A stretch of DNA of 64,000 nt from Salminus brasiliensis (Eukaryota; Chordata; Actinopteri; Characiformes; Bryconidae), in the NCBI RefSeq assembly GCF_030463535.1, contig NC_132900.1:25935456-25999455 (forward strand), given 5' to 3'. Shown here piece by piece: positions 24,487-62,285 of the stretch (positions are counted from its first letter, which is position 1; each line of letters opens with the position of its first letter). A model generated the notes under the pieces. It did no database searches, was not told the DNA's origin, and saw nothing but the letters and a program-made list of their open reading frames with translations. The translations under genes were made by a program, and so were the position numbers.

Positions 24487-24822
24487 TCAGCGCTGTCTGG
24501 AGAAGAGGTTCCTGAAGGCGTTGTTGTAGTTCTTGTTGAAGGCCGTGTAGATGAGCGGGTTGAAGAACGAGTTGGAGTAGCCGAGCCAGAGAAAGACGCT
24601 TTTCCACACGGGCGGGACATGGCAGGAGAAGAGCGGAGTGACCAGTTCGGTCAGAAAAAACGGGATCCAGCAAAGGACAAACACTCCGATGAGGATTCCC
24701 ACCATCAGTGCCGCCCGCCTTTCCTTCTGCTCCCGCCACGTCTCTCCATCTGTCTGGAACGTGACGGTGGCGTGCCGCACTGTGAAGGCCATCTGAGGCT
24801 GCTGCCGGGACGCCTCCTTTAC
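24487..24822 (-). CDS. htr5a: htr5a coding exon 2 (TM6-TM7 and tail)
   Basis: The exon encodes residues 234-344 and the stop codon. It covers the end of the third intracellular loop, TM6 (CWIPFF), TM7 (NPLIY) and the short C-terminal helix. The exon start after 'ggacag' is chosen because it continues 'AEAVE' with 'VKEAS', the family's conserved junction. Confidence 0.96.
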
Positions 24823-36400: not shown

Positions 36401-36815
36401 TTATCATATTTGCATAATTATAACAAATTAGACTGACAGTATTAAGACTTATATCTTATAGTTTAACGCATTTTGTAATAGATTAGCATCTTTATACAAT
36501 CTTAACCGATTACCCTGTATATTAACATTATCATAACTGATTAGCTCATATGCTAACATTATCATATTTGCATAATTATAACAAATTAGACTGACAGTAT
36601 CAAGACTTATGTCTTATATTTGAACACATTTTGTAATAGATTAGCATCTTTATATGATCTTAACTGATTAGCTCATATGCTAACATTATCATATTTGCAT
36701 AATTATAACAAATTAGACTGACAGTATCAAGACTTATGTCTTATATTTGAACACATTTTGTAATAGATTAGCATATTTATATGATCTTAACTGATTAGCC
36801 TGTCAGTCTATGAAT
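33500..36815. repeat. AT-rich satellite-like array, ~140-170 bp units
   Basis: From about 33950 to 36810 the sequence is a tandem array of about 19 units. Each unit runs 'attagactgacattatcata', 'tttaacatgttttgtaatag', 'attagcatctttatacaatc', 'ttaactgattagcctgtatg', 'ttaacattatcataactgat' and 'tagctcatatgctaacatta'. Repeats of the 'ttttgtaatagatta' anchor lie 138-170 bases apart (for example 34967, 35133, 35271, 35697, 35857, 36021, 36191). 33500-33950 holds decayed, irregular units. It lies between the 5' ends of htr5a and paxip1. Confidence 0.92.
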
Positions 36816-38189: not shown

Positions 38190-39085
38190 AAATTTTGAAG
38201 ATAATGAAGAAAGACAGCACTGATGATAATGAAGGTGGTGCTGATGAAGATAATGAAGAAGACAGCAATGATGATAATGAAGGTGGTGCTGATGAAGATA
38301 ATGAAGAAGACAGCACTGAAGATAATGAAGAAGGTGGTGCTGATGAAGATAATGAAGAAGACAGCACTGATGATAATGAAGGCGGTGCTGATGAAGATAA
38401 TGAAGAAGGTGGTGCTGATGAAGATAATGAAGAAGACAACAATGCTGATGAAGATAATGAAGAAAACAGCAATGATGATAATAAAGGTATAATGATGGGG
38501 CTGATGAAGATAATGAAGAAGAAAGCAGTGAAGATGATTATCTTCATCAGCATGACCAACATTATCATCATGAGCATAATGAAGAAGGGAAGTAGTGATG
38601 AAAAACAAGGAGGCGCTGGTGAAGATAATGAAGAAGCAGCAGTATAGATGATTATGATGATAATGAAGGTGGTGCTGATGAAGATCCTGATGAAGACAGC
38701 AGTGAAGATCTTCGTGCTCATGATGGTAATGAAGCTGGTGCTGATGAAGATACTGAACCCAGTGAAGATGATTATGTTCATGATAATAATGTCTAAAGAT
38801 ATTGCAAAAAAAAAACAGAAGTGGTGATGATTATGCTCATGGTGATAATACAGGCAGTGCTGATGAAGATAATGAAGAAGAAAAACTATGATAATGAAGG
38901 TGGTGCTGATGAAGATAATGAAGAAGACAGCACTGATGATAATGAAGAAAGATGAAGAAAGATGATGATGCTCATGGTGATAATAAAGGTGGTGCTGATG
39001 AAGATGAAAAAGAAAGCAGTGATGTTGATGATGATAATGTTGTTGTTGATGCTGATGATGATGATGAAGATATTATTATACACTT
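38190..39085 (+). repeat. 48-bp unit tandem array, arm 1
   Basis: Tandem copies of a 48-bp unit built from GATGAAGATAATGAAGAAG-type trinucleotide words. In one frame the unit would read DDNEGGADEDNEEDS. A frame stays open for 150 codons (38195-38647) purely because of the repeat. There is no start context, splice signal or homologue, so I do not call a gene. The unit is the reverse complement of that in 39970-40660. Confidence 0.9.
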
Positions 39086-39965
39086 GATTATACACTTTAT
39101 TTGTATGTGTCTAGAACCCACAAAGCCATCAAGAGTCCCATGCTGGAACTGCTGGAACTGCTGTAGTTGTCTCTGATTGCTCTTCAGTAGCCCACAAACA
39201 GTGTGACTTGCGGTGGGAACGTATTCCCCCCTGACTTAACTCTTAATGACCAGAAACACATTAATACAGTTATTATTCAACAGTTATTATTTTACTACTC
39301 AATCATTGCAGATGTTTAGGTGGTAATACAGCACTATGCACAGCCAGAAGTCAGTCAGAGTCAGTCTAACACGAAACATTAGAAAAGCTGAGTATCTGTC
39401 CTCAGCGACCCCTAATCAACAGAGAGCTGCGATGCCGGTAGGATGAGCTAACGAGGTTTAGTCTTCCTAAAAAGTGGGAAAAGAAGAAATGAGCTGACCC
39501 GAGGTCAGCAATTACTCACTTCAGAAGCATGTTCTGCTGACTCAGTTTGCTCTTCATAATAGGGACCACCGTAGTCCACTGTAGGCCTTCTTATCAGGCC
39601 CACACAGAAGAGGTCAGTCTGAAATGTGTTGGTGGCACTTCGTGCATTTCTGAGTTTCGTTTCACATTTGCATTAATTTGCCACCTGTGGCTCAGGCAGC
39701 TTCATTTGCGAGCACAGTTGGCTTCAAGCCAAATGTACCATAACTGTAACTTTCTGAAGGCCCAGTAGCCAGTGCATGAATAATAGCGTCCACTTAAGCA
39801 AGCTCGCTGAGGAAGCATTTCTTTACGTTTTTTTTTTAATCTAGAACCAAAAAATCTCTTCTAATGAGTCCTGTCCAGAAACTGTCCAGAGTTTCTACAG
39901 ACGACTCCATCTGTTATTCCGATTACAAGTAGCAGATAGGTAGCAGATACTTATCTGTGTTTCTT
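39086..39965. other. Unique spacer between inverted arrays
   Basis: About 0.9 kb of ordinary non-repetitive sequence. No gene was recognised. Confidence 0.45.
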
Positions 39966-39969
39966 TCTG

Positions 39970-40880
39970 TCTCAAAATTCTTATTATCTTCACTAGCACC
40001 ACCTTCATTATCATCACTGCTGTCTTTTTCAGTATCTTCACCAGCACCACCTTCATTATCATCACTGCTGTCTTTTTCAGTATCTTCACCAGCACCACCT
40101 TCATTATCATCACTGCTGTCTTCTTCATTATCATAACCATCTTCACTGCCTTCTTCTTCATTATCTTCCTCAGCACCATCTTCATTATGATCACTGCTGT
40201 CTTTTTCAGTATCTTCACCAGCACCACCATCATTATCTTCACTGCTTTCTTCTTCATTATCTTCATCAGCACCACCATCATTATCATCACTGCTTTCTTT
40301 TTCAGTATCTTCACCAGCACCACCACCCTTATCATCACTGCTTTCTTCTTCATTATCATAACCATCTTCACTGCCTTCTTTTTCAGTATCTTCATCAGCA
40401 CCACCATCATTATCATCACTGCTTTCTTCTTCATTATCTTCATCAGCACCACCATCATTATCATCACTGCTTTCTTCTTCATTATCTTCATCAGCACCAC
40501 CATCATTATCATCACTGCTTTCTTCTTTATCTTCACCAGCACCACCTTCATTTTCATAATTAAACTATTTTTCACAGCTTTCTTCATTACTTCCATCTCC
40601 ATCATTATCATCACTGCTTTCATCATCATCATCATCATCATCATTCTTCTTCTTAATTAGCACCACCTTCATCAACACGATCACAATCTTCATTATTTTC
40701 ATCACTTTCTACATCATTATTATGATCACTTTCATATCACTATCATTACAATATGTATCAGCACCACCTTCATCATTATCCTCACCATTGTCGTGCTCAT
40801 AATCTTCCTCACCATCTGCTTCTTCATTATTTTCATCACCAGCCCACCAGACTTCCACTTCTAACTTTACCTTCATAAGC
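39970..40880 (-). repeat. 48-bp unit tandem array, arm 2 (inverted)
   Basis: Tandem copies of 'cttcatcagcaccaccatca' plus 'ttatcatcactgctttcttc', which is the arm-1 unit reversed and complemented, also with a 48-bp period in its best part (40180-40530). Beyond 40600 it decays into simpler ATC/ATT repeats. Long frames on both strands (up to 249 codons) are repeat artefacts. Confidence 0.9.
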
Positions 40881-41436: not shown

Positions 41437-43974
41437 ATGTCGGAGGAAGAGCTAAAGGTTCCCGACGAGCTTTTCAAGGACGTGAAGTTCTACGTGGTCG
41501 GTGATATTGAGCAGAAGGTAAAAGTTTGCGGTGGTTTTCGGTGCTAGCTAGCTTACTGAGCTAAGGTAGCTAGCTAGCGTTAGCATAACAGAGCGCGCTG
41601 ATCGCATTTAGCAGCTAGCTAACGAGCTGCACTTTTCCACAAAGCGCTCATATGGGCCAGTTTTATAAAAGCATGTATAATATAGTTATTAAGCTCAAGA
41701 GAGGTGTTTTGGAAATCGTTTAAAGGAGTATTTTCGGTTTACTCAGCTGCCAAAGGTGACTAGCCTGCAGCCTCCTTCATTCAGAATGAACAGCACGAGC
41801 TAGGCTAGGCTAGCTAGCGCTAATAGCTACGTGACACAGTCCCTAAGTAAACAAACCAGGGTAGATATGTGATATATTGTACTTAAAGGATGAGTTCATG
41901 ATAATTAGATGATCACTGCGACGTCCTGTGTCATTAACGTTGTGTTATTTAGCTAGCTAGCTAACTTGCCAGCTGATTTAGCTACAGATTTAGCTAGCTG
42001 ATCAGCTGACACACTTTTTGGATAGGGTGATGGATGAACAGATGGGTAGACAAGTTAAGTAAAGTCAAGCTAAACACTGACAAAAACTAGATAGACACAC
42101 AAGTCAGATTAATCTGAAGACTAGCTAAGTAAGTAGACAGACAGACAGGAAAACAGATATACAGAGAGAAAGGCAAACTGAAAACTGTGGACAGACAAAG
42201 AGATCAGATCAGACAGCGAATTTGTTACTGTGAAGGTTTTAAAAATCATATTCTAATGTCAAACCAATAAAGTCAATGTGGCAAGAAATCTGAATCTGCT
42301 TGGCATCGCAATTGTATTACAATCTCTGATCATTGTGAAGGAGCCCTGTATATGCCGGAGCTCCTCAGCAGCCACCGCTGTGTTTCTTGTCTAACTGAAT
42401 TTTCCATGCAATTTTAGGTGGTGCAGCTGCTGAAAGCAGGGAAGGGTAAAGAAGTCTCCTACAATGCCCTTGCCACCCATATTATCGCAGAGGATGGAGA
42501 CAATCCAGAGGTTGGCGAGTCACGGGAGGTGTTTGACCTGCCTGTTGTGAAGGTAAGCTGCATATTGATGCATGGCACAGTTGCCAGGTTTGGTCAAATT
42601 CTTCACTTTCTTCACTTTTTCATGTAAACATGAAAAAACTGCTTGTGACTTTCTTATCTAGTGGGGAAAACTATGAATCTGATAACCCTGACATCAGTCT
42701 AAATATCAGTTTTTGTCCTTGTATATTAAAGCTTCAGTGTGGACAAGACACAGTATTACCATTCTATTACTACTTAATTGAATTGCTATACTCCTTGCAA
42801 TCTGCTGTAACACTTTGGTGAAAGCTTTATGTCACCTGTACTTAAGGCCTGCGTTATTTTGATTAAAATAAACGCTGTGGGTTAGATGGCTGACTTGATT
42901 CATATGACATACAAGAGTTAAAGTCTGATTTTGTCAGGATGCTGACAGGACAGTGCTTGATCAAATGTCTCCTTGGCATTTTGACTATGATATCAGTGTT
43001 GTAAATGCCAAAATGTCACAGTAATGCCTAACAAATCATATACAGTGCAGCCTGTGTGTGTGAAAACCTCACTGTGATATTTTTTTTGTGTCTTTCAGCC
43101 CAGTTGGGTGATCCTGTCCGTGCGATGTGGAGACTTGCTACCGTATCCTTATGAAGTACCTGGATTTGTCTAGTTATGATATTTGTAATATACATTTCAT
43201 AGGTCTGTCTCATACAGCAGGCTGTTTTGATGGTCAGCTAACCTTAAGCTGAATTTGATTCCGTCTCATGTCAGGGGATCAAGCTAGAGCTGGGCAATAT
43301 GACCATTTGTTTTTATCATATCTTGATAAGTTTTGTTATTGTGATGCATAATCTGCTTTTCTTATTGTATTGAGGACATTATTAGTGCTAAATAAACACT
43401 GCTGCACGATTCATTACCAACAGTGTGATTAGACTGGTTTAAGTAGATGACGTGCAGCAGATATTAAATAAAAACCACTGTATTACATTGTATTCACTGT
43501 AAGATTAGAGTATCTGAATAGCGGTTTTTAATAATCTGTCACTACTGATGTATTCAGTCTGTAATTACATGTATCGTGATTGTGTATCGTAAAATGTCTT
43601 TAAATACTGTGATATAGTATGTTTACCATATCGCCCAGCCCTATCCATAATTGCAGGAGAAGAGGTAAAAAGAGTCTTAACTCCTATGTTCGGTGTTTGG
43701 GATTGTAGATTGCTCTTGGACCAATCAAGGACAGTGGACACTTCTGGCCCTTTCAGTGTACTAAAAAAAGAAGCAATTTTATGTTTGATGATTGGCTGTT
43801 AATGGCAGAGTCATTAAGTCAAGTTAAAACAAGTGAACCATGGGTGCATTTATGAGGTTTTGTTAATCGAATACTTGGTCAGGAACCTTGTGTAAGTTAA
43901 CTTTGCTAGATCCCAGCTTTCTACATATATGTATCTTTTAAAAGTGCAGGGGTGTGTGTGTGTGTGTGTGTATG

Positions 43975-44007
<33 letters not shown>

Positions 44008-44012
44008 GTATG

Positions 44013-44044
<32 letters not shown>

Positions 44045-44048
44045 TATG

Positions 44049-44094
<46 letters not shown>

Positions 44095-44729
44095 TGAGAG
44101 AGAGAGAGAGACCATATCTTATATAATGTATGTATGTAAGATATGCAAGGATCAATGTTTTATTTTGTGTTGTTTGAACCCCTACTATTAGATAGCAGTG
44201 TTGTTCTTTATCTTTAAGTTTTATGCTTATTATGGTCTGTATTTTATAATCTGTAACAGTATATCGCCTTGCTTACAGTTTCACAATATATCGCAGTATG
44301 TTGAATCGCAACCCCTGTATCATGATGCGTATCATATCGCCAGGTTCTTGCCAGTTCACAGCCTTAATGTATGTATTCATATGATCATTATTTACATGGC
44401 TTATTAATTGTCACCTTAACCAACAATAATTCAGGGTTACAGGCTTTTCGCCTGAATCTGGGCAGCTTTTCTTTGGAGTCCGTGCGTGTTTACCCCACGT
44501 AAGTTGTTATTATTAGTTACCTAGAGGGTAGATGTTTTATTTACTGTACCTTCATGCTCTTCATGTTCAGGCCCTTAAATGACGTTCACTTATATTGTAT
44601 TATGTATTGGCTTCACAGCTTGCCGAAGACCTCAGCACCCTGTGGGCCTTTATAACGTTTTACGGAGGCGAATGTCAGCTGAATTTCAACAAGAAGTGCA
44701 CACACCTGGTGGTCCCTGAACCTAAGGGG
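41437..44729 (+). CDS. paxip1: paxip1 exons 1-5: BRCT1 and start of BRCT2
   Basis: Residues 1-145. Exon 1 starts [20 protein letters not shown]. Exon 2 gives '[20 protein letters not shown]' and 'EVFDLPVVK'. Exon 3 gives [14 protein letters not shown], with the BRCT tryptophan. Exon 4 gives '[13 protein letters not shown]', the start of BRCT2. Exon 5 gives '[19 protein letters not shown]'. Each matches the vertebrate protein in order. Junction phases are 0, 0, 2, 0, 0. Exon 3 is only 44 bases and is followed by a U12-type donor. Confidence 0.94.
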
Positions 44730-47700
44730 GTAAGAAAAATATAAGCTATTCATCTTGTCTCACTGGAGTTTATAACCAGTGCTTTCCATTTGCATTTAGA
44801 TTTGGCCTTAGCTGCTGGTTGTGAAGGCTGAGTATATTGCTGGGGGCACTTTTACGGCCAGTGAGTGACTTTTTAACGGTGCCGTTGGCTTTGTTTAACA
44901 GCCAGCCGTCTACTGTGACCGTGCGTCTGCTGCCTTTGTACTGTTGGATTTGCTTGTTTGGGGAGGGAGGGGGGGTTGGGTGTTTATTAGCCCTGTCTTA
45001 GGTGTTGATGCCCTTTGTGGACTGGGTTGGAGGAAGAGTTTATGGTGTCCAGCCTGATATTTCCTATGTGAGAATCCACACCAGCCACATTGTGACTTGT
45101 CAGCAGGTTTAGTGTTCATGAGACGGCCGCTCTAGCCAGTTGTTTCCACACTCTGTTTACTTTGGTCGAAAATGTTCTTGGACATGTCCCAATCTGTTCC
45201 AGTGACATGGGGACAGGGGCTGGTCCAGGATTTTTTTTTTTTTTTAAATGGATCATCTGTGACTTTATTTTGGTGAGCGAAACTAAATGGCTTTATTGGA
45301 ACTGATAAGTGCGGCAACATTACCAGTTAACAGCCCAAATTAAAACTAGCTAGAAGTTAGCTTCTGACTCCATTCCACCTTAAATAGTGCTGCAGTTACA
45401 CTGTGTACATTTCAACAGCATAACGTAACTGCTGCATTATTTAAGGTGGAACAGAAAGTTAGAAAGATCTAAGGTTCCTCTCATCCCGTTTCTACTCCTG
45501 TATATGCATTCAGAACTAAGGGGGAGGCTAATGCACACACACTAAGTGATCCGACTGCAGAGTTATGAAGGAATTGGGAGCTGAATAGTCAAGTGGTTCA
45601 GTCAGACTGGACTGTAAGATATTAAACACTAGAGTTTTAAACAGTCTTTAAAATATTGCTCCAAACAAATCAGATTAGAATTTAGTTTGATTGTTGAAGC
45701 TAGAACTAGAACTAGCTAGTACTAGTTATTTTCCTGCTGTTTATTATTGTTACTTTGTTACTATGTTACTTTGAAATCACTTGCTGTCATACACTATATT
45801 TACATTTACAATTATGGCATTTAGCTGACGCTCTTATCCAGAACGACTTACAAGGTTACTCGTATTACAGAGGAGGTGTTAGCAGTGTGTTAGGACCTTG
45901 CCCAAGGACTCTTATTGGTATAGCGCAGCATAGTCAGGCAGGTAGTGGTGTTATCTGTTGCGCCACACCAACCACCTGTGTTTATATGTCTTTGTAAGTG
46001 TTTGTAAACCCCTTTTTAATGAATGCTGCCAATATAATAAGAGCAGATAAATATGAACTTATTGGCACCATGCCTAATGCCAGGGTCTTGGCTGGAGGGA
46101 TATAAAGCCAGTTGTGATTTGAAACTTGGCTAACATTTTCCATGTTATGACCATGCATGTCCACCCAAGCTTGTCATCACATTAACCATGAAAGGAGCTG
46201 AGAAAGCAGCCATGTTAATAACATTGTTTGTGTGTTGTTTATGTACATTGTGTGTGTGTGTGTGTGTTTCCAGGCCAAGTATGAGTGTGCTTTGAGACAC
46301 AGTAGTATTAAGATCGTGACCCCTGAGTGGATCGTAGACTCCGTCAAAGATAAGAGCAGAAGGGACGAGGCTCTTTATCACCCACGCCTCACCTACCACG
46401 AGGAAGATGAGGAGGACGAAGAGGACGAAGGGAGCGAGTATGAAAACGAGCGCAGCTCCGAGGGCAGCTCTCGCAGCAGGCGCTCGAGCCCTGGCTCCTC
46501 CCGTGAGGCCACACCGTCCAGGCGCCACACCCGCTCCCCTTCCCCCAAACCCGAGCGGCGGCCAGAGCTCATGTTCGACGACTCTGACGACTCCAGCCCG
46601 GAGAAAGAGGAGCGGAACCTGAACTGGACGCCTGCTGAAGTGCCCCAGACCGGCCCGGCCAAGCGCCGCCTGCAGCCAGGCAAAGATACGGGCCTCATCA
46701 ACCTTTGTGCAAACGTGCCGCCTGTCCCGGGCGCGGTGGGCCCTGCAGAGGCTCGCCTGGGGGGAGCTGCTGGCCCTGGTGTTCCCTCAGGGGTGGAGCG
46801 GCCGGACATGATTGGTGGCTGGAACGCACCTGCCCGACCGCTGCGAAACATAACGAACAGCGGTGAGCCGCAGCAGGTCAACCGGCCGCCCAACGTTGCC
46901 CATGTAAGACAAGCACTTTACTCATTGCCCAGTGTGTTGTGTATTATGCAGCAGTTTTGCAGTGATGCTAAAGGTGTGAACAGGGTCATAACTATTGGTG
47001 TAAGAAATGTCAGAACCTTGTACAGCCCTAATCCTAACATGATCAATGTATACTGTATGTAAACATATACTGTGCATTAAATAACCCTCTACCATGACCT
47101 TAGATTCTCCAGAGTCTGTCTGCCTCTGCTAAAGGCATGGAGCAGCAGGGCGGTCAAGGCCAGCCTGGTATCCCCAACCAGCTGCTCTTCAACACTGTGA
47201 AGGGGCCACAGCAACAGCAGCTCACTCCTGAAGCACAGCAGCAGTTACTTCAACACCAGCAGCAGCAGCAGCAGCAGCAACAAGCACATCAGATCCCTCC
47301 ACAACAACAGCCGCAGCAACAGCATGCACAGCACATGCTGCAGCAACATCCCATGATGCATCTGCAACAGCAGAGCATACAAATGCCCCATCAACAACAA
47401 CAACAACAACAACAACAACAGCAGCAACAGCAGCAGCAGCAAGGGTTCCCTCAAATGCCACAACAGCAGCATCAGTACCTTCAACAGCAGATGCATCAAC
47501 AAATGTATTCACAGCAACAACATCAGCAGCAACAACATCAACATCAGCAGCAGCAACAACAACAACAACAACAGCAGCAGCAGCAGCAAACATTTTTGCA
47601 GCAGCAGTTGCGACCGCAGTTGCTGCGGCAACCTTTGCAGCAGCTGCAGCAGCTGCAACAGCAGCAGCAGTTGCAGCAGCTGCAGCAGCACAGGCTCCAG

Positions 47701-50700
47701 CTGCAGTTGCAGCAGCAGCAGCAAAATCAGCAGCAGATGCACCAGCAACATTTGCAACAGCAGCAGCAGCAGCAGCATTTCCTGCAGCAGCAGCAGCTCC
47801 AGCAGCATCACATGCAGCAGCTGCAGCAGCAACAGCAGCTGCAGCAACAGCAGCTGCAGCAACAACAACAACAGCAACAACAACAACAACAGCAGCTGCA
47901 AACCCAACAGCAGCTGCAGCATCAGAACCCACAGGCCCTTCAGCATCCACAGCAGACGGCGCTGCAGCCTCCACAGCTGCAGCAACTGTTCGGGCATGAG
48001 CCAGGGCAAGAGAGTAAGTATAGCAACTGGCTAACATTGATGATGCACTTGCTTAAGTGTTAGGGATGAGGTTTATTGTGTTTTGCTTCACGTTAAATTG
48101 AGCAGTGTTGCATTTTAATTTGCTTTAACTAGACCACTGTTTGATTGGAGGCGTTCTGGTGAATATTTGAGTTCTCATTCATTCTGTTCAGTCCCAGAAG
48201 ATGGCTTTTTGGTTGGCTGTGTCTTCGCCATCGCTGACTATCCGGAGCAAATGGCCGATAAGCAGTTACTGGCCACATGGAAAAGGGTAGGTTATCAGAA
48301 ACAGGGGGCTGGGCAGGGTAAATGTTTGTTTGGTGTGCCACACTCCAATCTTGAATGACCTTTTGAGACAAATCCTGAGCCAATGTAGGGGACCTGTGAA
48401 GCTTGGAATTCTTGTTGTATTCAACAGGATTGTGTCAGAGGGTGTTGTCTTCTTGATGTGATCCTTTTTGCTAATCATCTGTAACAATTTTTGTCCTTAA
48501 ACACAGATAATCCAGGCGTATGGAGGGTCTGTTGACTCTGCATTGAATCGCTGCACTCACTTGCTGTGTGAAAGTCAAGTCAGCAGCATGTATTTGCAGG
48601 TATGCATGGGCTCTAAACATGGCTTTGAGTTTGGGGTGTTCTTATTAATTACAAGAACTCTCCGGTATTACACACTATATGGATAAAGGTATTGGGACAC
48701 CGGTTCATTTATTGCTTCTTCTGAAATCAAGTAAATTTAATTAAACAATGTATGAAACTACCTCCATCATGTGTGGTGGTTGTATTTTAGCCTGCTTAGC
48801 TCTTACTGTAAATTGTTCATGTGCTTTAATACTCTGACCACTTCTCTAATAGTGGGAATAACAACCCTTGGCTCGGATGACTCTGACAAGACATCGTGGC
48901 ATGGACTGTATTCGGTTATCGGAGGTGTTCATTATAGAGGTTAACTGCTCCGCTGTGGCGCATCTGTACCACATGCCGAAATTGTCATTCCCGTCTGGCG
49001 TCAATGGCCTGTGTGGGGCACCACTGTTATGACATTGAGAAATGCATTGAGAAGTACACCTTCACTATGGCTGCTCTAGAACATCCTAGGAAATGTACCA
49101 AGTAAGGGTGGTAGAATCTCCAAAACTGTCCATCAGTCAGATTGCGTTCTTTACTCATGACTGTCATTTTGCACTCTGCTACAACTGACTGGTGTGCTCG
49201 CTTATTTATATGTGCAGCAAACCTGCAGCGTTCTTTCTGGTGGGTAAAAGGTGGTAGCATCTCAGAAAATTAAAAATGTTATTAGATGTTGTAGAGCTAT
49301 CGTAGTGAGGGTGTACCGAGAATGGACTTTTCGCACATTAAGTGCCTCCACACAACATAATAGTGGAGCCCCACGTGTCTTTGATGACTGGGGGGGGGGG
49401 GTGACGGCAACGATTCCAGCCAGTGGTACAGAGCAATCGACATGCCACTGTGGTGCAGTTAAGCTCTAATGAACACCTTCCATCCCCGAATATGACTGTG
49501 TATTACAGCCACCAGTTCGTTTGAGCCTCGCTCTCTGATACATTAACATCCCTCTCCACTTTAAGTACCGTGTTATTACATTTTTGCCAGATCGCCCACT
49601 CCTATTGAGGTCCAGGATGTGTACTCTTAATTTATATCCTTAAAAAATCTAGATCTAGAAATGGACTCAAACTTTCTTGTAAAAAGGGGAACAAGCCCTA
49701 CCTAAACAGGTGCATAATGTTCTAGTGCTGCCATTATCTGGAGGTTAATGCTGCATTCACTGCCACCTAATGTGCTGATGATTCACTTTTATAGGCTCTG
49801 AGAGAGGGAAAGCGCTGTGTGACGGCTCATTGGCTCAACACCATTCTGAAGAAGAAGAGGATGGTTCCTCCTCACCGGACGCTACACCTGCCCTTCAGCT
49901 TCCCTCCAGGAGCCAAGCCCTGCTCGCAGCATGTATGAAGAACGCTTCCTTTTACTCGGAGTTCATCCGAACACTTTATTATGCAGTTCCCTAAGTGACA
50001 GCTGCTGCACTGCTTATAGTGAATTGAGTAAGAGTCCATGTGTAGAGGCATGTAAATAATGAATTATTTATTTAATAATGTAAGCTAATGTAGCTAACAT
50101 ATAATGGAAGCGTATATATCCCACCAATTAACAAACAGCATACCCAAGTCATCAAGCCCTGTCAGGTTACAGGAATAGTTTGGCCAAAAATCTAAATGAC
50201 CCTGATTGATCAATGAGCCCAGATGCAGTCAATCAACCAAGAGCTGTTTGATACTTGGCATGTGCTTCTACAGGAGCTGCTAGGCTGATGTTGCTTAAAA
50301 AACACTGGGTTTAGACTGTCACCGCTCTCATCTCGGTGAACACCTTGTTTTAATCATATTCTTTTACTTTAAAAGTCTCTAGAAAAGCTTTAAAGAGGGT
50401 GGTTCCAGTTCACAGTTTTTTTTTAATTTATTTTAATTTTTTTACATTTTTTTAAATTTTTTTTATTTTTTTTTAATTAAAGTCACAAAGTCACCGTCTA
50501 AGTTCAGTGCTTATTAGCAACAGATATCAAGCTGATCAATCTTGGCTGATTGATTGCGTCAGGGTGAGTGATAACTTATGTTAATCAGATTTTTGACAAA
50601 CTGTCCCTTTAAGTTATCTCTAACAGACTTGCTTATGTGGTATCCGATACGGCTATTCTTGGTGTTTCAAGCTGCGAGCTGTACTTTGCAAAAGTACAAA

Positions 50701-53700
50701 ACTAAAGCAGCAAACGTCTTAAAATAGTAGTCTACTGTATCTTCTATTCTTAACATTTTATGTCCTGTAATTCTCAGATCATTTCAGTGACTGGGTTTGT
50801 GGACAGTGATCGAGACGACTTGAAGCTCATGGCCTACTTAGCAGGAGCGCGCTACACAGGCTACCTCTGCCGCAGCAACACCATTCTCATCTGCAAAGAG
50901 TAAGCCTCCATTAATTTGTTGCTCTTGTGGCCTTCTTTCTTCCCTCAGCCTCAAGAGATCTTGTGGATTAGGGAGGACACTGCTAATGGACATCATTGGA
51001 GTGGCCTTAAGTGAAATATTAAGACACTAGAGCTGTATAGATCTAGATTTCTCTGTGTTGCCAATAAAATGGGGCGCTTTATATCTGGAGCAGTGGCACA
51101 TGAGCCAGAGGTCACTGTGTCCAGAGCCTAGCTTTGGGCTGCAGAGCTGTGTTTTCTGGGGTGATGGAGATCCAACCAATACCTTTAAGATGAGTTGGAG
51201 CAACAGACCTGACCTCATTAATGTTCACAATGCCATCAAATCCTCACAGCAATGATCTGAAATGGGAGGCCACAGTGGACCTACTAATTGTTTTGCATCG
51301 TACTTTGAGTTTGATAGGTTGCAAGAGTGTGACAACACCTCAATCTATCAGTAGATCAACATAGCATTGTGTGTGTTTGTTGTGATCAGGCCGAGCGGTC
51401 TGAAGTACGAGAAGGCGAAGGAGTGGAGAATACCGTGTGTGAACGCCCAGTGGCTGTGTGACATCCTGCTGGGGAACATTGAGGCTCTGCGGCAGGTCCA
51501 GCACAGCCGATACTCACAGTTCAACATGACAGAACCACTGGCACCCAACCCACATCTAGTCCAGAACCTACTGGGTAAGATTCTGGGACTGAAACCAAAC
51601 TGAATAGCACTGTGGTAGGAAGTGTGAATAAATCTCTGCTTTTAGGATCTCAAAAGGGCAAGCAGTCACTACTGGAGTTAGGGCTCTATTATTTTCTTAT
51701 GCTTCACTAGGTTGGTTGATGAGGTGTCTAACTGTCTCTCTTTCTCTGCAGTTGCCTGGAGGAATCCTGTGAAAGTCTCCCCGGATGCATTGGTGGTGAG
51801 GAGACTTGCTTTCTGAATTGACTTCCACTTATTAATGATGGCCAGACTCATGTAGGCAGCCTGTTTGAGGCCTTGGTAAAGCAATAGAATGGCGAATAAA
51901 AATCTGATATACACAGCTATCCAAACGTGTGTTTTTATGCACTGGAAGCTTACTGGACTGCACACCTCAACCATTACACACATAGAGCTGTTCAATAATC
52001 TGTAATAAGCTTGCTTATGTGTAATCTATATACACCTTGTCTATGTTTGGATAGTTTTGTTCTCTAAAGAGTTGCATATTAGTTAAACTGTTTCTTTTAG
52101 AGGAGGTTAGGTTTTGCCGTTTATCATAGTAATTAATTGAAACTCTTGGTTGTAAAGCAGATCTAAAAACAGCTGATCAGTGTTGTGTGTTACTGGTGTG
52201 TCTGATTGTCATATATGTCTGTGTGGTGTTTCCCTGCACAGAGCCTACGCCTGCAGCAGAAGCAGAAGCAGACCGACAGCAGCTCCCAGCCACCAGCCAA
52301 GAAACCCAAGTAAGTCCTGGCACACACACACACTATGCTATGGGTTTAAAAGGGGTGGTCTTTCCTTGAAGTTAGGTTTATGCACAAATAAATTGGGTAG
52401 AGTATATGTCATTTAATATAAGATTGAGGCTGATTAAATGAATATTTAGCATAAACATGAAAGTAAGATGATAATTTTAAATGGACTCATTAAATTTTAA
52501 GTGGAAGTAAAGAGGCCAGAAAAAGGCAAACTAAAAAATGAGCTACATAAACTAGGCAACAGACTATCTAAAGTTTTTTTATTTGTGTCTTAAAAAGTGA
52601 TGTTAATATTTTAATTCATTATGAATAACTCTAAATACCTAATTAATGCATGACTACTCAGTTTGAAGTAAGATTTAGCTGTTATTATCAAGCATTAAGC
52701 ATCTCCGTTTTCATTGTTGGAATAAAAAGTGTCATTTTTAACTTTGTTAGAGACAAACATCAAAGTTACAGGGTGTCCTTTTCCAATTTCCAATTTCTGA
52801 CCGATCTGTAACTCCTCATGTATTATGTGGTGCACATAAAAAGCCAAATTCTGCACAAATCAAAACAAACTAAGTGTGAAGACAGTTTTAAAATTTTGCT
52901 TCATGAAAATTATGCTGAATGAACACCCATACCCCAGAGGTTTTAGCATATCTATTAGAATAATGATCAGTTTGCCTGAACTGCTCAACAGTTGCATGGT
53001 CTAGATGAAATATGCTGTATATTGGCAAGAAAACTCCTATTTTAAAACTGGTTCCACTGAATGCCAAGTACAGCACACATCTAGTCGTTGGGCTTTAAAC
53101 AAAACACTGTCTGCCATCAGTCTTTGCATATAAACTGTTAATTAAAAATAAATACCTTAATAATTGATACAGTATTGCAAGACATATTGTGATGATGAAT
53201 TGTATTGATATTTTCTTAGATGAGACGCAGGTTCTGTGTAGAGTGGAGCTTTAGGTTTGCATGTTAAAGTGTTTAAAATAAAATAAGGTGCTAAAATCGA
53301 AATATGCTATCCTGCAGAATGGAGGAGCTGCCCACGCCGACCAAAAAGCTTCCGCCGGAGTCCACGCCGTACGTCTTCTTCACTGGCTTTGAACCTCTGC
53401 AGGCCCAGCAGTACATAAAGGTATCTGAACCCAGTGTGGGTCTTTTCACGTTCTGTAGTAGAGCCTCTAATTGGCACCATTTGGCAGAGTGTCTAGAAGG
53501 ATGTAACTGGTCTTTGGCTGCTCGTTAGACAGCCTTTGCTGGTCCAGTGTCTGAAAAGGTTCGCTGTAAATGAACACGTTTGGGGGAAGAATAAATGCCT
53601 GCAGGCTTAGAGCGGCTCAAGATCTGAGAGAAATCAGATTGTCATCTGAAATAACACTTACACAAGAGCTCTTTACTGAGCCTTCACGTTTTGTCTCTCT

Positions 53701-55383
53701 CGCTCTCGCTCTCTCTCTCCTTCAGAGATTGTACGAACTTGGTGGCGAAGTATCTGACAGTGCCCAGAAGTGCACTCATCTGGTGGCCAGCAAAGTGACC
53801 CGCACAGTCAAGTTCCTGACGGCCATATCCATCGTTAAGCACATCGTCACACCGGAGTGGCTGCAGGAGAGCTGGAAGAGCCAGAAATTTGTGGGTGAGT
53901 CTGTCTGGAGGTGATCTGCAGGAATCATGTGCATTTTTTGATAAAGCAATCCTCAAGGCCACAAATCTGATTGTGAAAATCTTTTGAAAATGTGTGTGTA
54001 GATGAACAGAACTACATGCTGCGTGATGCAGAGGCAGAGGTACTGTTCTCATTCAGTCTTGAGGAGTCACTGAAGAGAGCTCACTTGGCTCCACTCTTCA
54101 AGGTAAGGAGCTTCCCCTTCTGCTCTCATTAGAATCAAAATCTCAAAAATCTGTTTAGCATAAACTGTGATCTAGGAGTGTAAATCTCTCACCCTACTAT
54201 TTGGAATGCGCTGCTGGTATTGAGAGCTGCTGTTGGTATTGTTTATTTACATATCTGTGGAAAAAATATGTAATGTGATCATAAATAAACATAAATAAAT
54301 ATAAGCATTACAGAAGTATAATTTATTAGTAGAGATTCCAAATGCAGTAAAGATTTTTGTCCAGTAGTCCAGCGTCACCTAAACATTCACCTTCTGGAGT
54401 TCAGTAAAGACATCAAAGCACATCAGCTTCAGATATTGGACAACTCTGAACATCTGATGCAGATTTAAACAGGAGGCTTACATAAATACAAGCAAATATC
54501 TACTGATGCCAGTATGATGTAAGATCTTTGTGCATGCCTTTTAATAGTATTTGTTAGAACAAATACATGTACTAACAAAATCTGAGTTTCACATTAAGTT
54601 CCTAATACTGTATTTTTGTTAATTAAAAACAAAACAATGCTGTTTACAGAAACAGTAGAAGTAATTTAGTTTTGAACAAAAATAGTAATTTTATTATACA
54701 AAAAAAGCCCAGCAATTTTAACAAAAAGTAGTGAAGATAGACTAGTGACTTCATTTTAAATTAATTTGATTTTTTTTTATTATTATTATTTTGAACCAGA
54801 AAATGGCCCAGTAATTTCATTTTAAGCCAGAAATGGCCTAGTAATTTTATTTTGAATCATAAAATAGCTAAATTTTATTTTGAACAAAGAACAGCTTAAT
54901 CATCTTATTTTAAAACAAAAAATAGCCCAATCATTTAATTTAATTTGTTGAAGTGAATGCTTTATTATTTAAAAATAATTTGATTAGTATTTGGTCCCAA
55001 TCCAGTTAATTCTGTAGTATTTACATCCGTATGTCCGCACTTTCAATAAAATAACTAAATAGTGTGAATGTTGGTAAACTGTACAAATCTTTTCTTCTAC
55101 ACTCATTGTAAGCCAGTATGGGGCCAATTCCTTTCCTCTGCTATGAAACATTCCTGAGGTGCAAGGGTTTTTTTTTTAAACAGAAACCACAAGTTAAAAG
55201 ACAATAGCTTTATTGCCGGCAGTGACAGTCATACATCTCCTTTCCTCTTTACTCATCACCAGCATCCCTCTTTTTCCCCCCTCCCCCCAGCCTGGTCTTG
55301 GTGAGCGTTGACTGTACTCCAGCGCTCGCGAATGGCTTAATAGGATGTCATGGAATAACTTATTCTATACTATCTATCTATCA

Positions 55384-55434
<51 letters not shown>

Positions 55435-58196
55435 TTAATTCTGAATCTTTTTTTTTTTTTAAATGTCTTACTCTCGTCTCCACAGGGGAAGTACTTCTAC
55501 ATAACGCCGGGGATATGTCCGAGCCTCAGCACCATGAAAGCCATCGTTGAGAGCGCTGGAGGGAAGCTGCTGTCCAAACAGCCTTCCTTCCGCAAGATCA
55601 TGGAGCACAAGCAAAACAAGGTAACCCTCCTGCCCTTCCCCCACGAGAACTAGCGCGGTCCCAGCTCCATCAGCCGCTTAGTTTATGTATCGATCTCCTG
55701 GAGCCATTGAGTCTTTTGCGCCAGACATGATGGCTACACTCAATAGAGACTTAAATAGACTTATTTACAGCTAAGAACCGGCAGCAGGCCAGCACTCCCT
55801 GAAAAGTGTTTGATCTTCTTTGTGTGACCAGGTCAAATACAGTCACCTTGTCGCCTGATGTTCTTTTGTAGATTTTAAAATGACAGTTTTAATTCAGTTG
55901 TCTGGGTTTTAAAAAATAAAATATATATACACACATGTATATCGCTGATATGTTTCTTTAGCCAAGTGCTAACACAACCCTTTAATGTGCTATGGCCTGT
56001 ATGTTAGTCTACACTTCTGTTTTCACTCCTATAAACTAAAGTTTCTTACTAGGGTAGTTTAGTGTGATTTCTTGGAATAAATGACCGTATCAGTGATGAA
56101 ATTAACATTGGAAATTGTCTAGACCTACCCTAATCAGGATCTGTCAGAATTCTTGCAAAATTAAACAAAAATGTAAATGAACAAATTAAAGCTTAATTTA
56201 CTTTTTTTATTAAACTTTGTAGGAAATATTTCTAACAGCTTTCTTGCAGCTATTTTAAATAATAAATAAAAAAAGGAATAAAATATAAAACTAAAACAAA
56301 CAAAAAAAAGAAATTAGAAAACATTATTTGTGGGAAAGAAATATTTTCTATACCCTTTATATACTGCAACTGCACTATCTAGGAATACTTCATATTAGTT
56401 ACTGAGTAAGACATTTTAAGATTATTAATATGCCTGAAATTTAAGCCCTGACAAGCATTTCTGTTATTCTCTCCAACAGAACCTACCAGAGATCATCCTG
56501 ATCTCGTGTGACAATGACCTGCACCTGTGCCGTGAATACTTTCTGAAGAATATTGGTAAGGAAGTCCACCTTTTAAAATGCTAATCTTAATTTCAGATTT
56601 TTGCTTACTTGTTGACTGAACAGGTAAAAGGAGGACTGCGCAATATGGACAGTATTCTTGTGATGCATTAATAAGAATATTGGTGATAATAAGGTCAATA
56701 ATGAGACATGACATTTAAAATCTTTTTTTTTTTAACAAGAACACACACATAAAGCCACCTGGAGCTGTGATTGGCCAGAAACAGCACACAGTAAAAACAC
56801 TACTTGGATAGAGACTTCTTGGCATTATTAATAACTGTTACATTGTTGTACAAGTTTGATGTGCTGGATGTTCTTTACTCCACTTGTTTTTGGTATGAGA
56901 TTAAGTATGAGATTAATGAGATTAAAGTACTAATAATTTTGCTAATCCATGTCCCTTTTCCCCACATCCCTTTTTTTTATCCCTTTTTATATTGTAGATG
57001 TGCACAACGCTGAGTTCATTCTAACAGGAGTGCTGACTCAAACCCTGGATTACGAATCATATCCTTTTACCCCCAAACTTGGTGAGAAAGAACACACAGT
57101 GAACATGAGCTCATGTTACCCAGTAGGCCCTGTATTGTGTACGAAAGTTGATTACTTTTAGGGGGCTTTTATGTTTGGTTTATACACCGATCAGCCATTA
57201 CATCAGCGCTACCTGCCTAATATTGAGTAAGTCCTCCTCGAGGCATGGGCTCTACAAGACCCCTGTGGCCCTACAGACCCCAAGGCGACCTGTGGCGTCT
57301 GGCACCAAGGCGTTAACAGCAGATCATTTACCTCTTGTAAAAGGTGTTCATGACCTTGTTGTTGGTTCACTGGTTGCCTGTGTCGTCTAATCATTACAAT
57401 TTGGCCTCAGATCTTTATGCTAGCACATTTTTTTTTTCTGCTTTCAACAAATCACCTTCAAGAGCTGACTGTTTACTTGGTGCCTAATATGTCCACTTTT
57501 TAAGTGCCACTGTATATTATGATAATGCCCCCCCCCCACACACACGCCTTTCATTGGTGGAAATGTTATGGCTGATTGGTCAGTAAAGTGGTGTCAAAAA
57601 AACTGGTCCGCACAGCATTTTACAGGCTTTGACAATCAAATATTTTGATCAATATGTAAATAAACAGTCATTCTAAGAAATATCCTTAAGAGATGTTACA
57701 TAATGAACCTCAATTTTAAGCATGTTTGTTTACTGCAGTTCAAGATGTAACCAGTACGGGCAGTGACTTATTAGTGTTTTAATCCAGAGATGGCGCGAAT
57801 GAACGCTGTAAGGCATATGAAGGCTACCCATGAGAATAGCCTGCACATGCCTTACCGTAACTATATAGGATGTAACTATACTTACATTCATCACATATGT
57901 CACGAATTTCTGATGCATGAAATCAGTCTGAATTTGTTTATTATTTTTATCTTTTATCTCCATTTTTGGCCTAATGTGAATCTGATAATCAATTGTGATA
58001 TACTATAAATATATTATGGAATATAAGAAATAGTCATCAGAGAAACAAGTAGCAACATGAATAGTATACTCCACTGTTTACGTTATTCAGGCCAGCCCCA
58101 TAAAGTCAAATTGCTTTTACTTGAAAGTGCCAGTGCAAAGTTTCCAGCATTGATGACGTTGTTGTCCTTAACGCTCACACATATAAGTTCACATGA
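41437..58196 (+). CDS. paxip1: PAX-interacting protein 1 (PTIP), 21 coding exons
   Basis: PTIP is a nuclear scaffold. Through BRCT domains it binds phosphorylated partners such as 53BP1 in DNA-damage signalling, and it belongs to KMT2C/KMT2D histone H3K4 methyltransferase complexes. Exons: 41437-41517, 42418-42552, 43099-43142, 44435-44498, 44619-44729, 46274-46903, 47104-48013, 48192-48286, 48507-48599, 49795-49932, 50778-50899, 51390-51574, 51752-51795, 52242-52309, 53318-53420, 53726-53894, 54002-54102, 55486-55620, 56480-56555, 56998-57058, 58181-58196. They sum to 3,381 bases in one frame: 1,126 residues (human 1,069). Domains: BRCT1-2 (about 9-185), acidic and Arg-Ser-rich linker (190-260), Gln-rich linker (about 370-650), BRCT3-4 (about 659-850), BRCT5-6 (about 925-1122). 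Introns 3 and 20 have U12-type signals. The gene appears intact. Confidence 0.95.
41518..42417 (+). other. paxip1: paxip1 intron 1
   Basis: Donor GTAAAAG, acceptor 'gcaattttag'. The first 500 bases are rich in the words 'gctagc' and 'tagcta' (41540-42000), as short self-complementary repeats. No other feature was seen. Confidence 0.8.
43143..44434 (+). other. paxip1: paxip1 intron 3, U12-type GT-AG
   Basis: The donor GTATCCTTATG (43143-43153) fits the U12 consensus (RTATCCTTT) in its first eight bases and not the U2 consensus. A branch-site match CACCTTAAC lies at 44412-44420, 14-15 bases before the terminal AG (44433-44434). There is no polypyrimidine tract at the acceptor, as is typical of minor-spliceosome introns. 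The intron also contains a (GT)n(TA)n microsatellite with GTAT units at about 43950-44095. Confidence 0.85.
45783..46112. mobile_element. Two transposon-derived fragments in paxip1 intron 5
   Basis: 45783-45970 carries the dispersed fish repeat phrase 'catttagctgacgctcttat' plus 'ccagaacgacttaca' and 'aggaccttgcccaaggactc'. 46000-46112 is a fragment of the 11588-12120 DNA-transposon family ('agagcagataaatatgaact', 'tattggcaccatgcctaatg'). Confidence 0.55.
46274..46903 (+). CDS. paxip1: paxip1 exon 6: end of BRCT2, acidic and RS-rich linker
   Basis: Residues 146-355. '[13 protein letters not shown]' supplies the C-terminal tryptophan helix of BRCT2. An acidic run follows ([17 protein letters not shown]), then a Ser/Arg-rich stretch ([19 protein letters not shown]), which I do not recall in the mammalian protein, where this part is Ser/Glu-rich. 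The conserved blocks '[20 protein letters not shown]' and '[14 protein letters not shown]' then resume. The SP/TP dipeptides are potential phosphorylation sites. Confidence 0.93.
47104..48013 (+). CDS. paxip1: paxip1 exon 7: giant glutamine-rich linker
   Basis: Residues 356-658. After '[11 protein letters not shown]' the exon is mostly Gln with interspersed His, Leu, Met and Pro. The longest pure run is about 17 Gln (near 47394-47444), coded by mixed CAA and CAG, with a His-led flank. It ends '[12 protein letters not shown]', matching the conserved LFGHDP junction into BRCT3. Human PTIP also has a Gln-rich linker here, but shorter overall. CAG/CAA repetition makes the exon prone to length change. 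Antisense frames of poly-Leu, poly-Ala and poly-Val are artefacts. Confidence 0.93.
48192..50899 (+). CDS. paxip1: paxip1 exons 8-11: BRCT3 and start of BRCT4
   Basis: Residues 659-808. Exon 8 gives '[20 protein letters not shown]', nearly identical to mammals. Exon 9 has '[13 protein letters not shown]', exon 10 '[19 protein letters not shown]' with the BRCT tryptophan, and exon 11 '[20 protein letters not shown]' opening BRCT4. The introns between carry transposon relics (48663-49560) and a dispersed repeat (50150-50340). Confidence 0.94.
48663..49560. mobile_element. Transposon relics in paxip1 intron 9
   Basis: 48663-48740 has the 'cactatatggataaaggtat' plus 'tgggacacc' terminus of the non-autonomous family. 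49251-49500 (plus strand) holds a Tc1-like transposase N-terminal relic: '[14 protein letters not shown]' resembles the second helix-turn-helix, followed by '[11 protein letters not shown]', where Tc1 proteins have a GRPR-type hook. Frame breaks and a G-run near 49390 show that it is inactive. Confidence 0.55.
51030..51262. mobile_element. DNA-transposon fragment in paxip1 intron 11
   Basis: The segment contains 'agctttgggctgcagagctg', 'ttctggggtgatggagatcc' and 'aagatgagttggagcaacag', in the same order as the 11588-12120 family interior. Confidence 0.5.
51390..53420 (+). CDS. paxip1: paxip1 exons 12-15: end of BRCT4, linker, start of BRCT5
   Basis: Residues 808-941. Exon 12 has '[19 protein letters not shown]'. 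Exon 13 is 44 bases ('[14 protein letters not shown]'). Exon 14 is a 68-base Gln/Lys-rich linker ([15 protein letters not shown]), which diverges from the mammalian sequence and may carry the nuclear-localisation basic residues AKKPK. Exon 15 has '[19 protein letters not shown]', the start of BRCT5 with its TG phosphate-binding dipeptide. Confidence 0.92.
53726..57058 (+). CDS. paxip1: paxip1 exons 16-20: BRCT5-BRCT6
   Basis: Residues 942-1121. Exon 16 has '[20 protein letters not shown]' and '[11 protein letters not shown]'. Exon 17 has '[20 protein letters not shown]'. Exon 18 has '[20 protein letters not shown]', exon 19 '[18 protein letters not shown]', and exon 20 '[19 protein letters not shown]'. 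In mammals this C-terminal tandem BRCT pair is the phospho-SQ/TQ reader that binds 53BP1. Exon 20 ends two bases into a serine codon, followed by ATATCCTTTT. Confidence 0.94.
55384..55432. repeat. (TA)n microsatellite in paxip1 intron 17
   Basis: An uninterrupted TA/AT run of about 40 bases lies about 55 bases before the exon 18 acceptor. A poly-T tract follows it. Confidence 0.9.
57059..58180 (+). other. paxip1: paxip1 intron 20, U12-type AT-AC
   Basis: The donor ATATCCTTTT (57059-57068) is a perfect AT-AC minor-intron donor. The branch site TCCTTAAC is at 58165-58172, and the intron ends in AC (58179-58180) about nine bases later. Length is 1,122 bases. A Tc1-like deletion derivative (57183-57585) lies inside. 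Using these sites restores the conserved C-terminus. Confidence 0.88.
57183..57585. mobile_element. Tc1-like deletion derivative inside AT-AC intron
   Basis: The left terminus is 'acaccgatcagccattacat' and the right terminus is 'aatgttatggctgattggtc', an imperfect inverted pair. The interior has the transposase 3' end in reverse ('ctcgaggcatgggctctaca', 'ctgtggcgtctggcaccaag') and 'gcctaatatgtcc' near the right end. No transposase is left. Confidence 0.7.
58181..58196 (+). CDS. paxip1: paxip1 exon 21: 16-base last coding exon
   Basis: Bases A TAT AAG TTC ACA TGA complete the split serine codon and add Tyr-Lys-Phe-Thr-stop, giving an 'ESYKFT' end where the mammalian protein ends ESYKFN. The match, together with a U12 branch site and AC acceptor just upstream, is why this exon is preferred over the read-through frame ending at 57161. 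Confidence 0.85.
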
Positions 58197-58540
58197 GGAG
58201 GATGTCCTTGCGAGGATCTGAGGGAAGAGAACACTACAGTCTCTCAATTGGTGCCTCCACTGGGCCACAATGAAGGTTACCTTTTTTTTTTTTTTTTTTT
58301 TTTTTTTCTCAGAATCAGAATATACAATATAAAGTTGCTTATTTGCATATTTGATTTTTTTATATGGTTCCAGTCATTTATTACTGTTTTTTGTAGATGT
58401 TACAAGTGAGGGAGGGGAAGGGGGGGCAAAAAATAAATTGCTGTTATTTTTTAATTGTTTAAATTATGCCATATCATCTGGTTTGTTTTTATTGTAATGT
58501 TAATGTCTTACCTTTTTGGAATAAAAACCTCAAATGATTG
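58197..58540 (+). terminator. paxip1: paxip1 3' UTR with polyadenylation signals
   Basis: AATAAA hexamers occur at 58432-58437 and 58520-58525. The first is followed by a T- and GT-rich stretch (58446-58515), as expected for a cleavage/polyadenylation region. A T-run of about 29 bases lies at 58282-58310. Confidence 0.55.
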
Positions 58541-60286
<1,746 letters not shown>

Positions 60287-60369
60287 GCTGTTTATCTCTT
60301 CCTTCTGTTCCAGGCGACTGCAAAAATCTTAATTGGCTAATGCAGCGGATCTTTTCACTTTTCCACAGC

Positions 60370-61085
60370 TTGACTACATTCATACCTAATTGTCACCTAA
60401 TTGACACACTGCTTAATTGCAATTAAAAATGCAAATGATGGGCCCAGATCTTTGATTAACGTGCACAAGTTCCTTGTTGGTTTGTGGATGTCCTCGAAGA
60501 TTTGTGCTGTTGATGCTCTCCTGCAATAAAACATCAGGAGACGCCGTAATTAACCTTAAACGCTAAAAGGATGTGTGTTTTAATTACCACGGCCCCCCCC
60601 CCTTTCCTCCTCTCGGTAGCGTTGCAGCATTTGGACTCTTAACTTCTTAGTGGTAAATGTATTATAATATACAAATTACATGCTAATTAGAAAGAACAAT
60701 GCTTTGGGATTCACTGACGCTTACATTTGCATATGAGCTAATTACCCTTCATTAAAAAGCTGGCTAATGACTAATTTGGTGAAGGCAGAATTAATGATGA
60801 CATAGCAGGGGCTTTGTGTGGACAAAGCTGGGTTGTTTAGGCCCATTTCATGAGGATTACCGTCGCCTACTGTAGTAGTAGTACAGTAGCGATCAAAACT
60901 CCAGAGCTGAACACGACAGAACCATGTGGGTTTCGATGCGGTGCATTTAAATTGCGCTAATTAAAGAAGGTTTCTGAATGGATCTTTAGAACGTCCACGT
61001 TCAAACCAATGGTAATGAAGCACATAGATATGAGCAATTAAATGAATTATGTAAAACTAAATCGAAGTCGTCGGGAAAAGGAAGG
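60370..61085. promoter_or_regulatory. Candidate conserved non-coding block
   Basis: Repeat-free sequence is dense in homeodomain, POU and HMG-type words: 'gcttaattgcaattaaaaat', 'atgcaaatgatgg' (octamer-like), 'cgtaattaacctt', 'catgctaattagaaag', 'tttgcatatgagctaattac' and 'gcagaattaatgatgac'. It has no coding capacity. It resembles vertebrate developmental enhancers, but conservation is untested. Confidence 0.4.
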
Positions 61086-62285
61086 CGAAACCCAAATTAA
61101 TAGACGTGCCAATCATTCGTCTCGAAGGGATTTTACAGTCCATATACATTAAAAAGGTATACGAGTCTTACATCAATCAGATGATAATTGCTTTTGTGTC
61201 TGGTTGGATGAGCGCACTGCTGAGGGGCATGGACCTGTTTCTTAAACAGCCTTTTTTGAAACCCATTTTTAGAGACTTTTGTTTAAGACGCTTATCAAAA
61301 GACACCCACTGCAGAATGTGCTGCTGATATCTCAATACAGGCTCTGGAAACTGTTAGTTAAAGCGTGTGAAACAGTAAAGGGGTGTTCTCTGGAAGCCTC
61401 TGTGCCTCGACGGCCATGAAGGGGTGACGCTTTGCTGCTCTTGCAGGGTTAAATGTATGAATTTGTCACGGTATCTTAAAGCTGCAGGGGGTGGGATTTA
61501 TATGTTAACGTGGTATTGAGCCATGCTCATATGCGCCAGCTATTCAAGTAGTCACCACATGGCGTTCGCTCCTATAGGCGCTTTGTTTCTGAGGCCCATT
61601 TTCACCAGCGTCTTTTACCAAAACTGGTGGAACGACAAGAAAAATATCAGGATTGCGGTTTCGCATTTAACCTACATGCCTCATGCAGGCCTCCTACGGG
61701 TTTACAGTGCTATGAATAGCTGCTTACTTTCTTTCAAAGAATTGACAGTGGCCTCCACAGGAATTTGGACAGTTTTTGTTGTTGTCATTGTGTTGGGAAA
61801 CCAAAAGTTGAACCAATGTAACCTTTATTTTAATCAGGTTGTTCTCAGGCTGGAGTTCGGTCTGTTTCGGGTTGTTATAGTTTCAGCAGTTTCTTTGCAG
61901 ACTCTTTTTCAGGTTTGCCTGCCGTCGAGAACTTCGGAGCTCACGATCCTATCAATGAAAACAAACTCAAAACGCTGACAGTCTGGAGGTGCTGGAGGAC
62001 TGCTTTCAGAACAGATTCTATACAGCAGTACTTCTCACCTCTGTTCCTGGAGGCCCACTGCCCTGCATTTTCTTTTAGTGTTTGCTTTTCTCCCAACACA
62101 CTTGAGATCCAGCTAATCAGCTCATTAACTGCCCATTACTGAGTTAAAGTGGGTGTGTTAAAGCAGGGAAAGCACTAAAATGTGCAGGGCAGTAGGCCTC
62201 GAGGACCAGGGTTGAGAAATACCGCTTCACAGTATGCCTCAGTGCAGTCAGGCTGAAAATCTAAGATGTGCTCTCAGTACTTCCT
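61086..62285. other. Intergenic, no gene seen
   Basis: A plus-strand frame of 151 codons (61523-61978) has no recognisable domain. No known repeat was identified in this part. Confidence 0.4.

What the first reader, a model, noticed from the sequence alone, without database searches (positions are those of the whole stretch)
57059..58196. AT-AC minor-spliceosome intron defines a 16-base last coding exon of paxip1
Seen: donor ATATCCTTTT at 57059, branch site TCCTTAAC at 58165-58172, terminal AC at 58179-58180. Joining these gives Ser-Tyr-Lys-Phe-Thr-stop, matching the conserved ESYKF ending of mammalian PTIP. Conventional GT-AG gene finders would miss this exon and report a wrong C-terminus.
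Basis: partly seen in the sequence, partly recalled or inferred. Interest (0 to 1): 0.72.

Follow-up and report, generated by a model that had tools for sequence, protein, structure and literature searches.

The report
AT-AC minor intron ending fish paxip1
The last intron of a fish DNA-repair and chromatin gene, paxip1, carries the signals of a rare second class of introns, so the true end of the protein lies about a kilobase further on than ordinary splicing rules would suggest; this is a good but ordinary example of a known kind.

Summary
In a 21-exon paxip1 gene (read here from ATG 41437 to TGA 58196, 1126 codons), the last intron, 57059-58180, begins ATATCCTT (8 of 8 to the U12 AT-AC donor), has a perfect TCCTTAAC branch site (58165-58172) and ends in AC. 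Joining the exons gives ...LDYESYKFT-stop. The solved PAX-interacting protein 1 chain 3sqd aligns without gaps and ends one residue after YKF. Among the donor/acceptor pairs tested around this exon end, only this AT-AC intron gives ESYKF(x)-stop. Each motif alone is about as common as chance; the combination with the conserved tail is decisive. So this looks like a two-minor-intron gene, a known kind. No RNA evidence and no other vertebrate genome could be consulted, and the search for the fish's own U12/U6atac RNA genes did not complete. Whether the human intron is already catalogued could not be checked. Low interest.

The parts
41437..58196 (+). paxip1 coding region, 21 coding exons read here, 1126 codons
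   Evidence: hand-read exons, single open frame ATG to TGA; Pfam BRCT domains; 3sqd match of the last 219 residues
56998..57058 (+). exon 20, ends ...TLDYE + TC of the Ser codon
57059..58180 (+). intron 20, 1122 nt, phase 2, U12-type AT-AC
   Evidence: donor 8/8, branch site 8/8, terminal AC; only tested intron that gives ESYKFx-stop
57059..57068 (+). U12 AT-AC donor ATATCCTTTT
58165..58172 (+). U12 branch site TCCTTAAC; 9 intron bases follow the second A, 10 the first
58179..58180 (+). acceptor AC
58181..58196 (+). coding part of last exon: A of Ser + Tyr-Lys-Phe-Thr-stop
58197..58525 (+). presumed 3' UTR; AATAAA at 58432 and 58520 (end of the part set at the second signal, inferred)
43143..44434 (+). 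intron 3, 1292 nt, phase 2, second candidate U12-type intron (GT-AG subtype): GTATCCTTAT ... ACCTTAAC ... AG
   Evidence: donor 8/8, branch site 7/8, frame continuity; GTATCCTT is found only here on the + strand and not on the - strand of the window
57059..57161 (+). in-frame continuation if intron 20 is retained: 33 codons after Ser, stop at 57159-57161

Best explanation
57059-58180 is a constitutive U12-type (minor-spliceosome) AT-AC intron, the last intron of paxip1. U11 (and later U6atac, from general knowledge) would pair with ATATCCTT, U12 would pair with TCCTTAAC, and AC is used as the 3' splice site; the product ends ...ESYKFT, the conserved PTIP C-terminus. Shown here: the motifs, the reading frame, the match of the tail to the solved PTIP chain, and that no other tested splice gives it. 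Inferred: that the RNA is spliced so, and by the minor spliceosome.
For: Perfect 8/8 donor and 8/8 branch site plus AC, identical to the published description ATATCCTT / TCCTTAAC / AC (PMC2831892, passage seen). Only intron of those tested that yields ESYKF(x)-stop. 3sqd aligns without gaps at residues 10-218 of 219 and ends one residue after YKF. U12 introns are biased against phase 0 (PMC7367187, passage); this one is phase 2. A second intron of the same gene has an 8/8 U12 donor while the other 18 of 20 introns have 6/8 or fewer; one or two minor introns among major ones is the usual layout of such genes (PMC6865273, passage).
Against: No RNA evidence. The branch-to-acceptor spacing (9-10 nt after the A) is slightly under the 11-13 nt optimum given in PMC3584512 (passage). 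The motifs alone are at chance frequency in the window, and a motif pair of this kind appeared in 17 of 200 simulated strands. U12 and U6atac genes in this genome could not be tested (12 unanswered genome-search runs). The last residue (T) lies outside the alignment to 3sqd. An AT-AG pair, 57061-62247, gives a loosely similar tail, ESFRLKI.
Confidence: 0.96

Rival explanations
1. The last exon simply continues past 57059 (no intron, or retained intron), ending ...[35 protein letters not shown] with its stop at 57159-57161.
For: The frame stays open for 33 codons after Ser and keeps Y, F and T at the places of YKFT; an AATAAA lies in the intron at 57659.
Against: 3sqd has K, not P, and ends one residue after YKF; the continuation with K, the right length and a stop exists at 58181 behind perfect U12 signals.
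Confidence: 0.02
2. A GT-AG intron from GTGAGA at 57082 leads to a different last exon.
For: A GT donor is present at 57082.
Against: It would keep YPF in place of YKF, and no GT-AG or GC-AG pair among those tested gives the conserved tail; a relaxed pattern adds only an AT-AG pair, 57061-62247, giving ESFRLKI.
Confidence: 0.01
3. An AT-AC intron removed by the major spliceosome, as known for several AT-AC introns.
For: Such introns exist (PMC6717393, passage).
Against: The extended donor and branch site are those of U12-type introns, and these define the class rather than the termini (PMC3584512, passage).
Confidence: 0.01

Closest known systems
U12-type (minor) AT-AC introns of vertebrates
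   Same: donor ATATCCTT, branch site TCCTTAAC, acceptor AC (PMC2831892 passage); no clear polypyrimidine tract before the acceptor, judged by eye; phase 2; mostly major introns around it
   Different: nothing essential seen; the branch-to-acceptor spacing is slightly under the published optimum
PAXIP1/PTIP (solved chain 3sqd, PAX-interacting protein 1)
   Same: C-terminal tandem BRCT and the YKF tail, same length
   Different: last residue here is Thr; the chain's last residue lay outside the alignment (recalled as Asn in human PTIP)
Genes with two minor introns (50 in mouse and 50 in human, PMC6717393 passage)
   Same: one GT-AG and one AT-AC U12-type intron in one gene, by sequence
   Different: whether PAXIP1 is among those 50 could not be checked

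Membership tests
U12-type AT-AC intron | donor ATATCCTT at +1 to +8 | tested here: met
   8/8 at 57059
U12-type AT-AC intron | branch site TCCTTAAC near the acceptor | tested here: met
   8/8 at 58165; spacing 9-10 nt, slightly under the 11-13 nt optimum (PMC3584512 passage)
U12-type AT-AC intron | terminal AC that restores the conserved frame | tested here: met
   the only strict hit among tested pairs
U12-type AT-AC intron | excision depends on the minor spliceosome | not testable with these tools
   no RNA or perturbation data; snRNA gene searches unanswered
U12-type GT-AG intron (intron 3, 43143-44434) | donor GTATCCTT (consensus recalled) and U12 branch site | tested here: met
   donor 8/8, branch site ACCTTAAC 7/8, 15 nt after its second A
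PAXIP1/PTIP | N-terminal, middle and C-terminal BRCT domains, Gln-rich stretch, C-terminal tandem BRCT closest to PTIP | tested here: met
   the N-terminal 184 residues found no PTIP chain in the PDB, best match TopBP1 at E 1.4e-13
Conserved minor intron of vertebrate PAXIP1 | same intron type at the same place in human and zebrafish | not tested
   no vertebrate genome other than the window's own was at hand; supplements of minor-intron papers not readable; text searches found no naming

The most novel reading that the evidence does not exclude
Regulated retention of the AT-AC last intron, or polyadenylation within it (AATAAA at 57659), yields a stable second PTIP form with a 29-residue longer tail (ESYPFTPK...VDYF), which would escape nonsense-mediated decay because no junction follows its stop; minor-spliceosome activity would then set the PTIP C-terminus.
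Probability: 0.05. Interest if true: 0.45.

Novelty: new member of a known kind. Interest (0 to 1): 0.2.

Why it matters
It fixes the likely C-terminus of this paxip1 gene model and shows two minor-type introns in a chromatin and DNA-damage gene, so loss of minor-spliceosome function should affect PTIP in this fish (inference). For annotation it is a clear test case: a predictor that allows only GT-AG would end the protein wrongly. It opens no long-standing question.

Tried and rejected
Rejected: read-through, GT-AG from 57082, and the other tested donor/acceptor pairs. That test took last exon bases 57030-57119 followed by GT, GC or AT, acceptors at least 40 nt downstream up to 30 nt before the window's end, the pairings GT-AG, GC-AG, AT-AC, AT-AG and GT-AC, and needed a stop within 60 nt after the acceptor. 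Rejected: reading the motifs alone as proof, since both are at chance frequency. A genome-wide pattern of mine was badly designed, gave 7 matches against 10 for the reversed control, and says nothing here; it did show a genome of 1.07 Gb in 103 contigs with the window on C27. Rfam found nothing in the window at gathering thresholds.

Not achieved: finding U12 and U6atac snRNA genes in the window's genome (unanswered: 11 for U12, 1 for U6atac). Not achieved: confirming the intron type in human or zebrafish. Paper searches gave 0 papers for PAXIP1 + minor intron, PAXIP1 + U12-type, PTIP + AT-AC intron, PAXIP1 + minor spliceosome and PTIP + minor spliceosome. PAXIP1 + U12 as whole words gave 1, a uveal melanoma review seen only in the listing; PAXIP1 + intron retention gave 3, listing only. 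In a mixed search, the 15 listed of 98 papers hold PAXIP1 0 times each. Two minor-intron papers searched within do not name it in the main text. Gene lists of such papers sit in supplements that I could not read, so all this is weak evidence of absence.

Full report
What is there. The window holds a complete paxip1 gene on the + strand. I read 21 coding exons by eye, corrected their boundaries by the reading frame, and obtained one open frame from ATG 41437 to TGA 58196, 1126 codons. Pfam finds BRCT domains in the N-terminal, middle and C-terminal pieces given to it; between the first two lies a long Gln-rich stretch. The last 219 residues match the solved chain 3sqd, PAX-interacting protein 1, at E 8.6e-121. 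The N-terminal 184 residues find no PTIP chain in the PDB; their best match is TopBP1, E 1.4e-13.

The last intron. Exon 20 ends ...TLDYE plus TC at 57058. The next bases are ATATCCTTTT. At 58165-58172 stands TCCTTAAC, followed by GCTCACAC and then ATATAAGTTCACATGA. Splicing 57058 to 58181 gives ...LDYESYKFT-stop. The 3sqd alignment runs without gaps from residue 10 to 218 on both sides, through YKF, and the chain has 219 residues, as does the query. So both the sequence and the length of the tail are kept; the last residue itself is outside the alignment.

Could it be chance? Each motif alone is near the frequency expected from shuffles: ATATCCTT 4 against 2.87, TCCTTRAY 9 against 9.81. An ATATCCTT with a TCCTTAAC within 8 kb and a close AC arises in 17 of 200 simulated 64-kb strands. 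The strength lies in the coding constraint. I took each last exon base from 57030 to 57119 that is followed by GT, GC or AT, and paired it with compatible AG or AC acceptors from 40 nt downstream to near the window's end. One intron alone gave ESYKF(x)-stop, this one. A relaxed pattern added one AT-AG pair, 57061-62247, ending ESFRLKI, a poor match. By a naive count that treats donors as random positions, a perfect U12 donor at any of 20 exon ends is expected 0.0008 times; real donors are not random positions (most must begin GT), so the true figure is higher, but this gene has two.

A second minor-type intron. Intron 3 (43143-44434) begins GTATCCTTAT, the only GTATCCTT on either strand of the window, and has ACCTTAAC with 15 nt between its second A and the exon; it is phase 2, as is intron 20. 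The other 18 of 20 introns match the U12 donor at 6 of 8 places or fewer; one of them, intron 10, also has a 7/8 branch-like word, but with a 4/8 donor. The exon 3/4 junction rests on frame continuity and on a recalled resemblance to human PTIP (GFSPES), not on a database match, and GTATCCTT as the GT-AG subtype's donor is recalled.

Comparison with what is known. The early-described AT-AC minor class has ATATCCTT at the donor, TCCTTAAC at the branch and AC at the acceptor (PMC2831892, passages). A review gives an optimum branch-to-acceptor distance of 11-13 nt and calls donor and branch site the defining features (PMC3584512, passages); here 9-10 nt follow the A, slightly short. In mouse and human about 24% and 22% of minor introns are AT-AC, 50 genes in each have two minor introns, and in mouse 122 of 722 minor introns are the first or last of the gene (PMC6717393, passages). 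Zebrafish has 662 listed U12-type introns in 612 genes (PMC9501576, passages). Nothing here departs from that picture.

If the intron is not removed. The frame continues for 33 codons after Ser to a stop at 57159-57161, reading YPFTPK..., which keeps Y, F and T of the spliced tail and changes only K to P before the extension. There would be no junction downstream, so decay is not expected, and an AATAAA lies at 57659. That such a form is made is pure inference.

Limits. No RNA data and no other vertebrate genome were at hand, and the search of the window's genome for U12 and U6atac genes did not complete (12 calls listed in Tried and rejected). Zebrafish has a working minor spliceosome (PMC9501576, passages), so I take its presence in this fish as very likely. 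That the organism is a fish is itself inferred from the gene and the genome's size, not from a named record. Whether the human and zebrafish introns are already listed as minor could not be checked; I expect so, in which case the finding is already known.

Verdict. Observation and interpretation hold, with two additions (a second minor-type intron; the 16 bases are the coding part of a terminal exon). It is an ordinary member of a known kind. Interest 0.2.

Noticed in passing
43143-44434: Second candidate U12-type intron of paxip1, GT-AG subtype, GTATCCTTAT donor and ACCTTAAC branch site.
   Followed up: yes
57680-57690: A second ATATCCTT inside intron 20, followed by AAG; a possible decoy U12 donor upstream of the same branch site.
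   Followed up: partly
24487-27186: On the - strand, two open stretches (24487-24888 and 26443-27186) read by eye as a GPCR that looks like a serotonin receptor (htr5a by recall), which would match the HTR5A-PAXIP1 neighbourhood recalled from mammals.
   Followed up: no
47137-48013: Very long Gln-rich stretch of paxip1, made of CAG/CAA runs.
   Followed up: no
38195-40660: Degenerate repeats of a GATGAAGATAATGAAGAA kind upstream of paxip1, in opposite orientation on the two sides of about 39.1-39.9 kb, seen by eye.
   Followed up: no
33600-36800: Long degenerate AT-rich tandem-like array with units containing TTAGCATCTTTATACAATCTTAAC, seen by eye.
   Followed up: no
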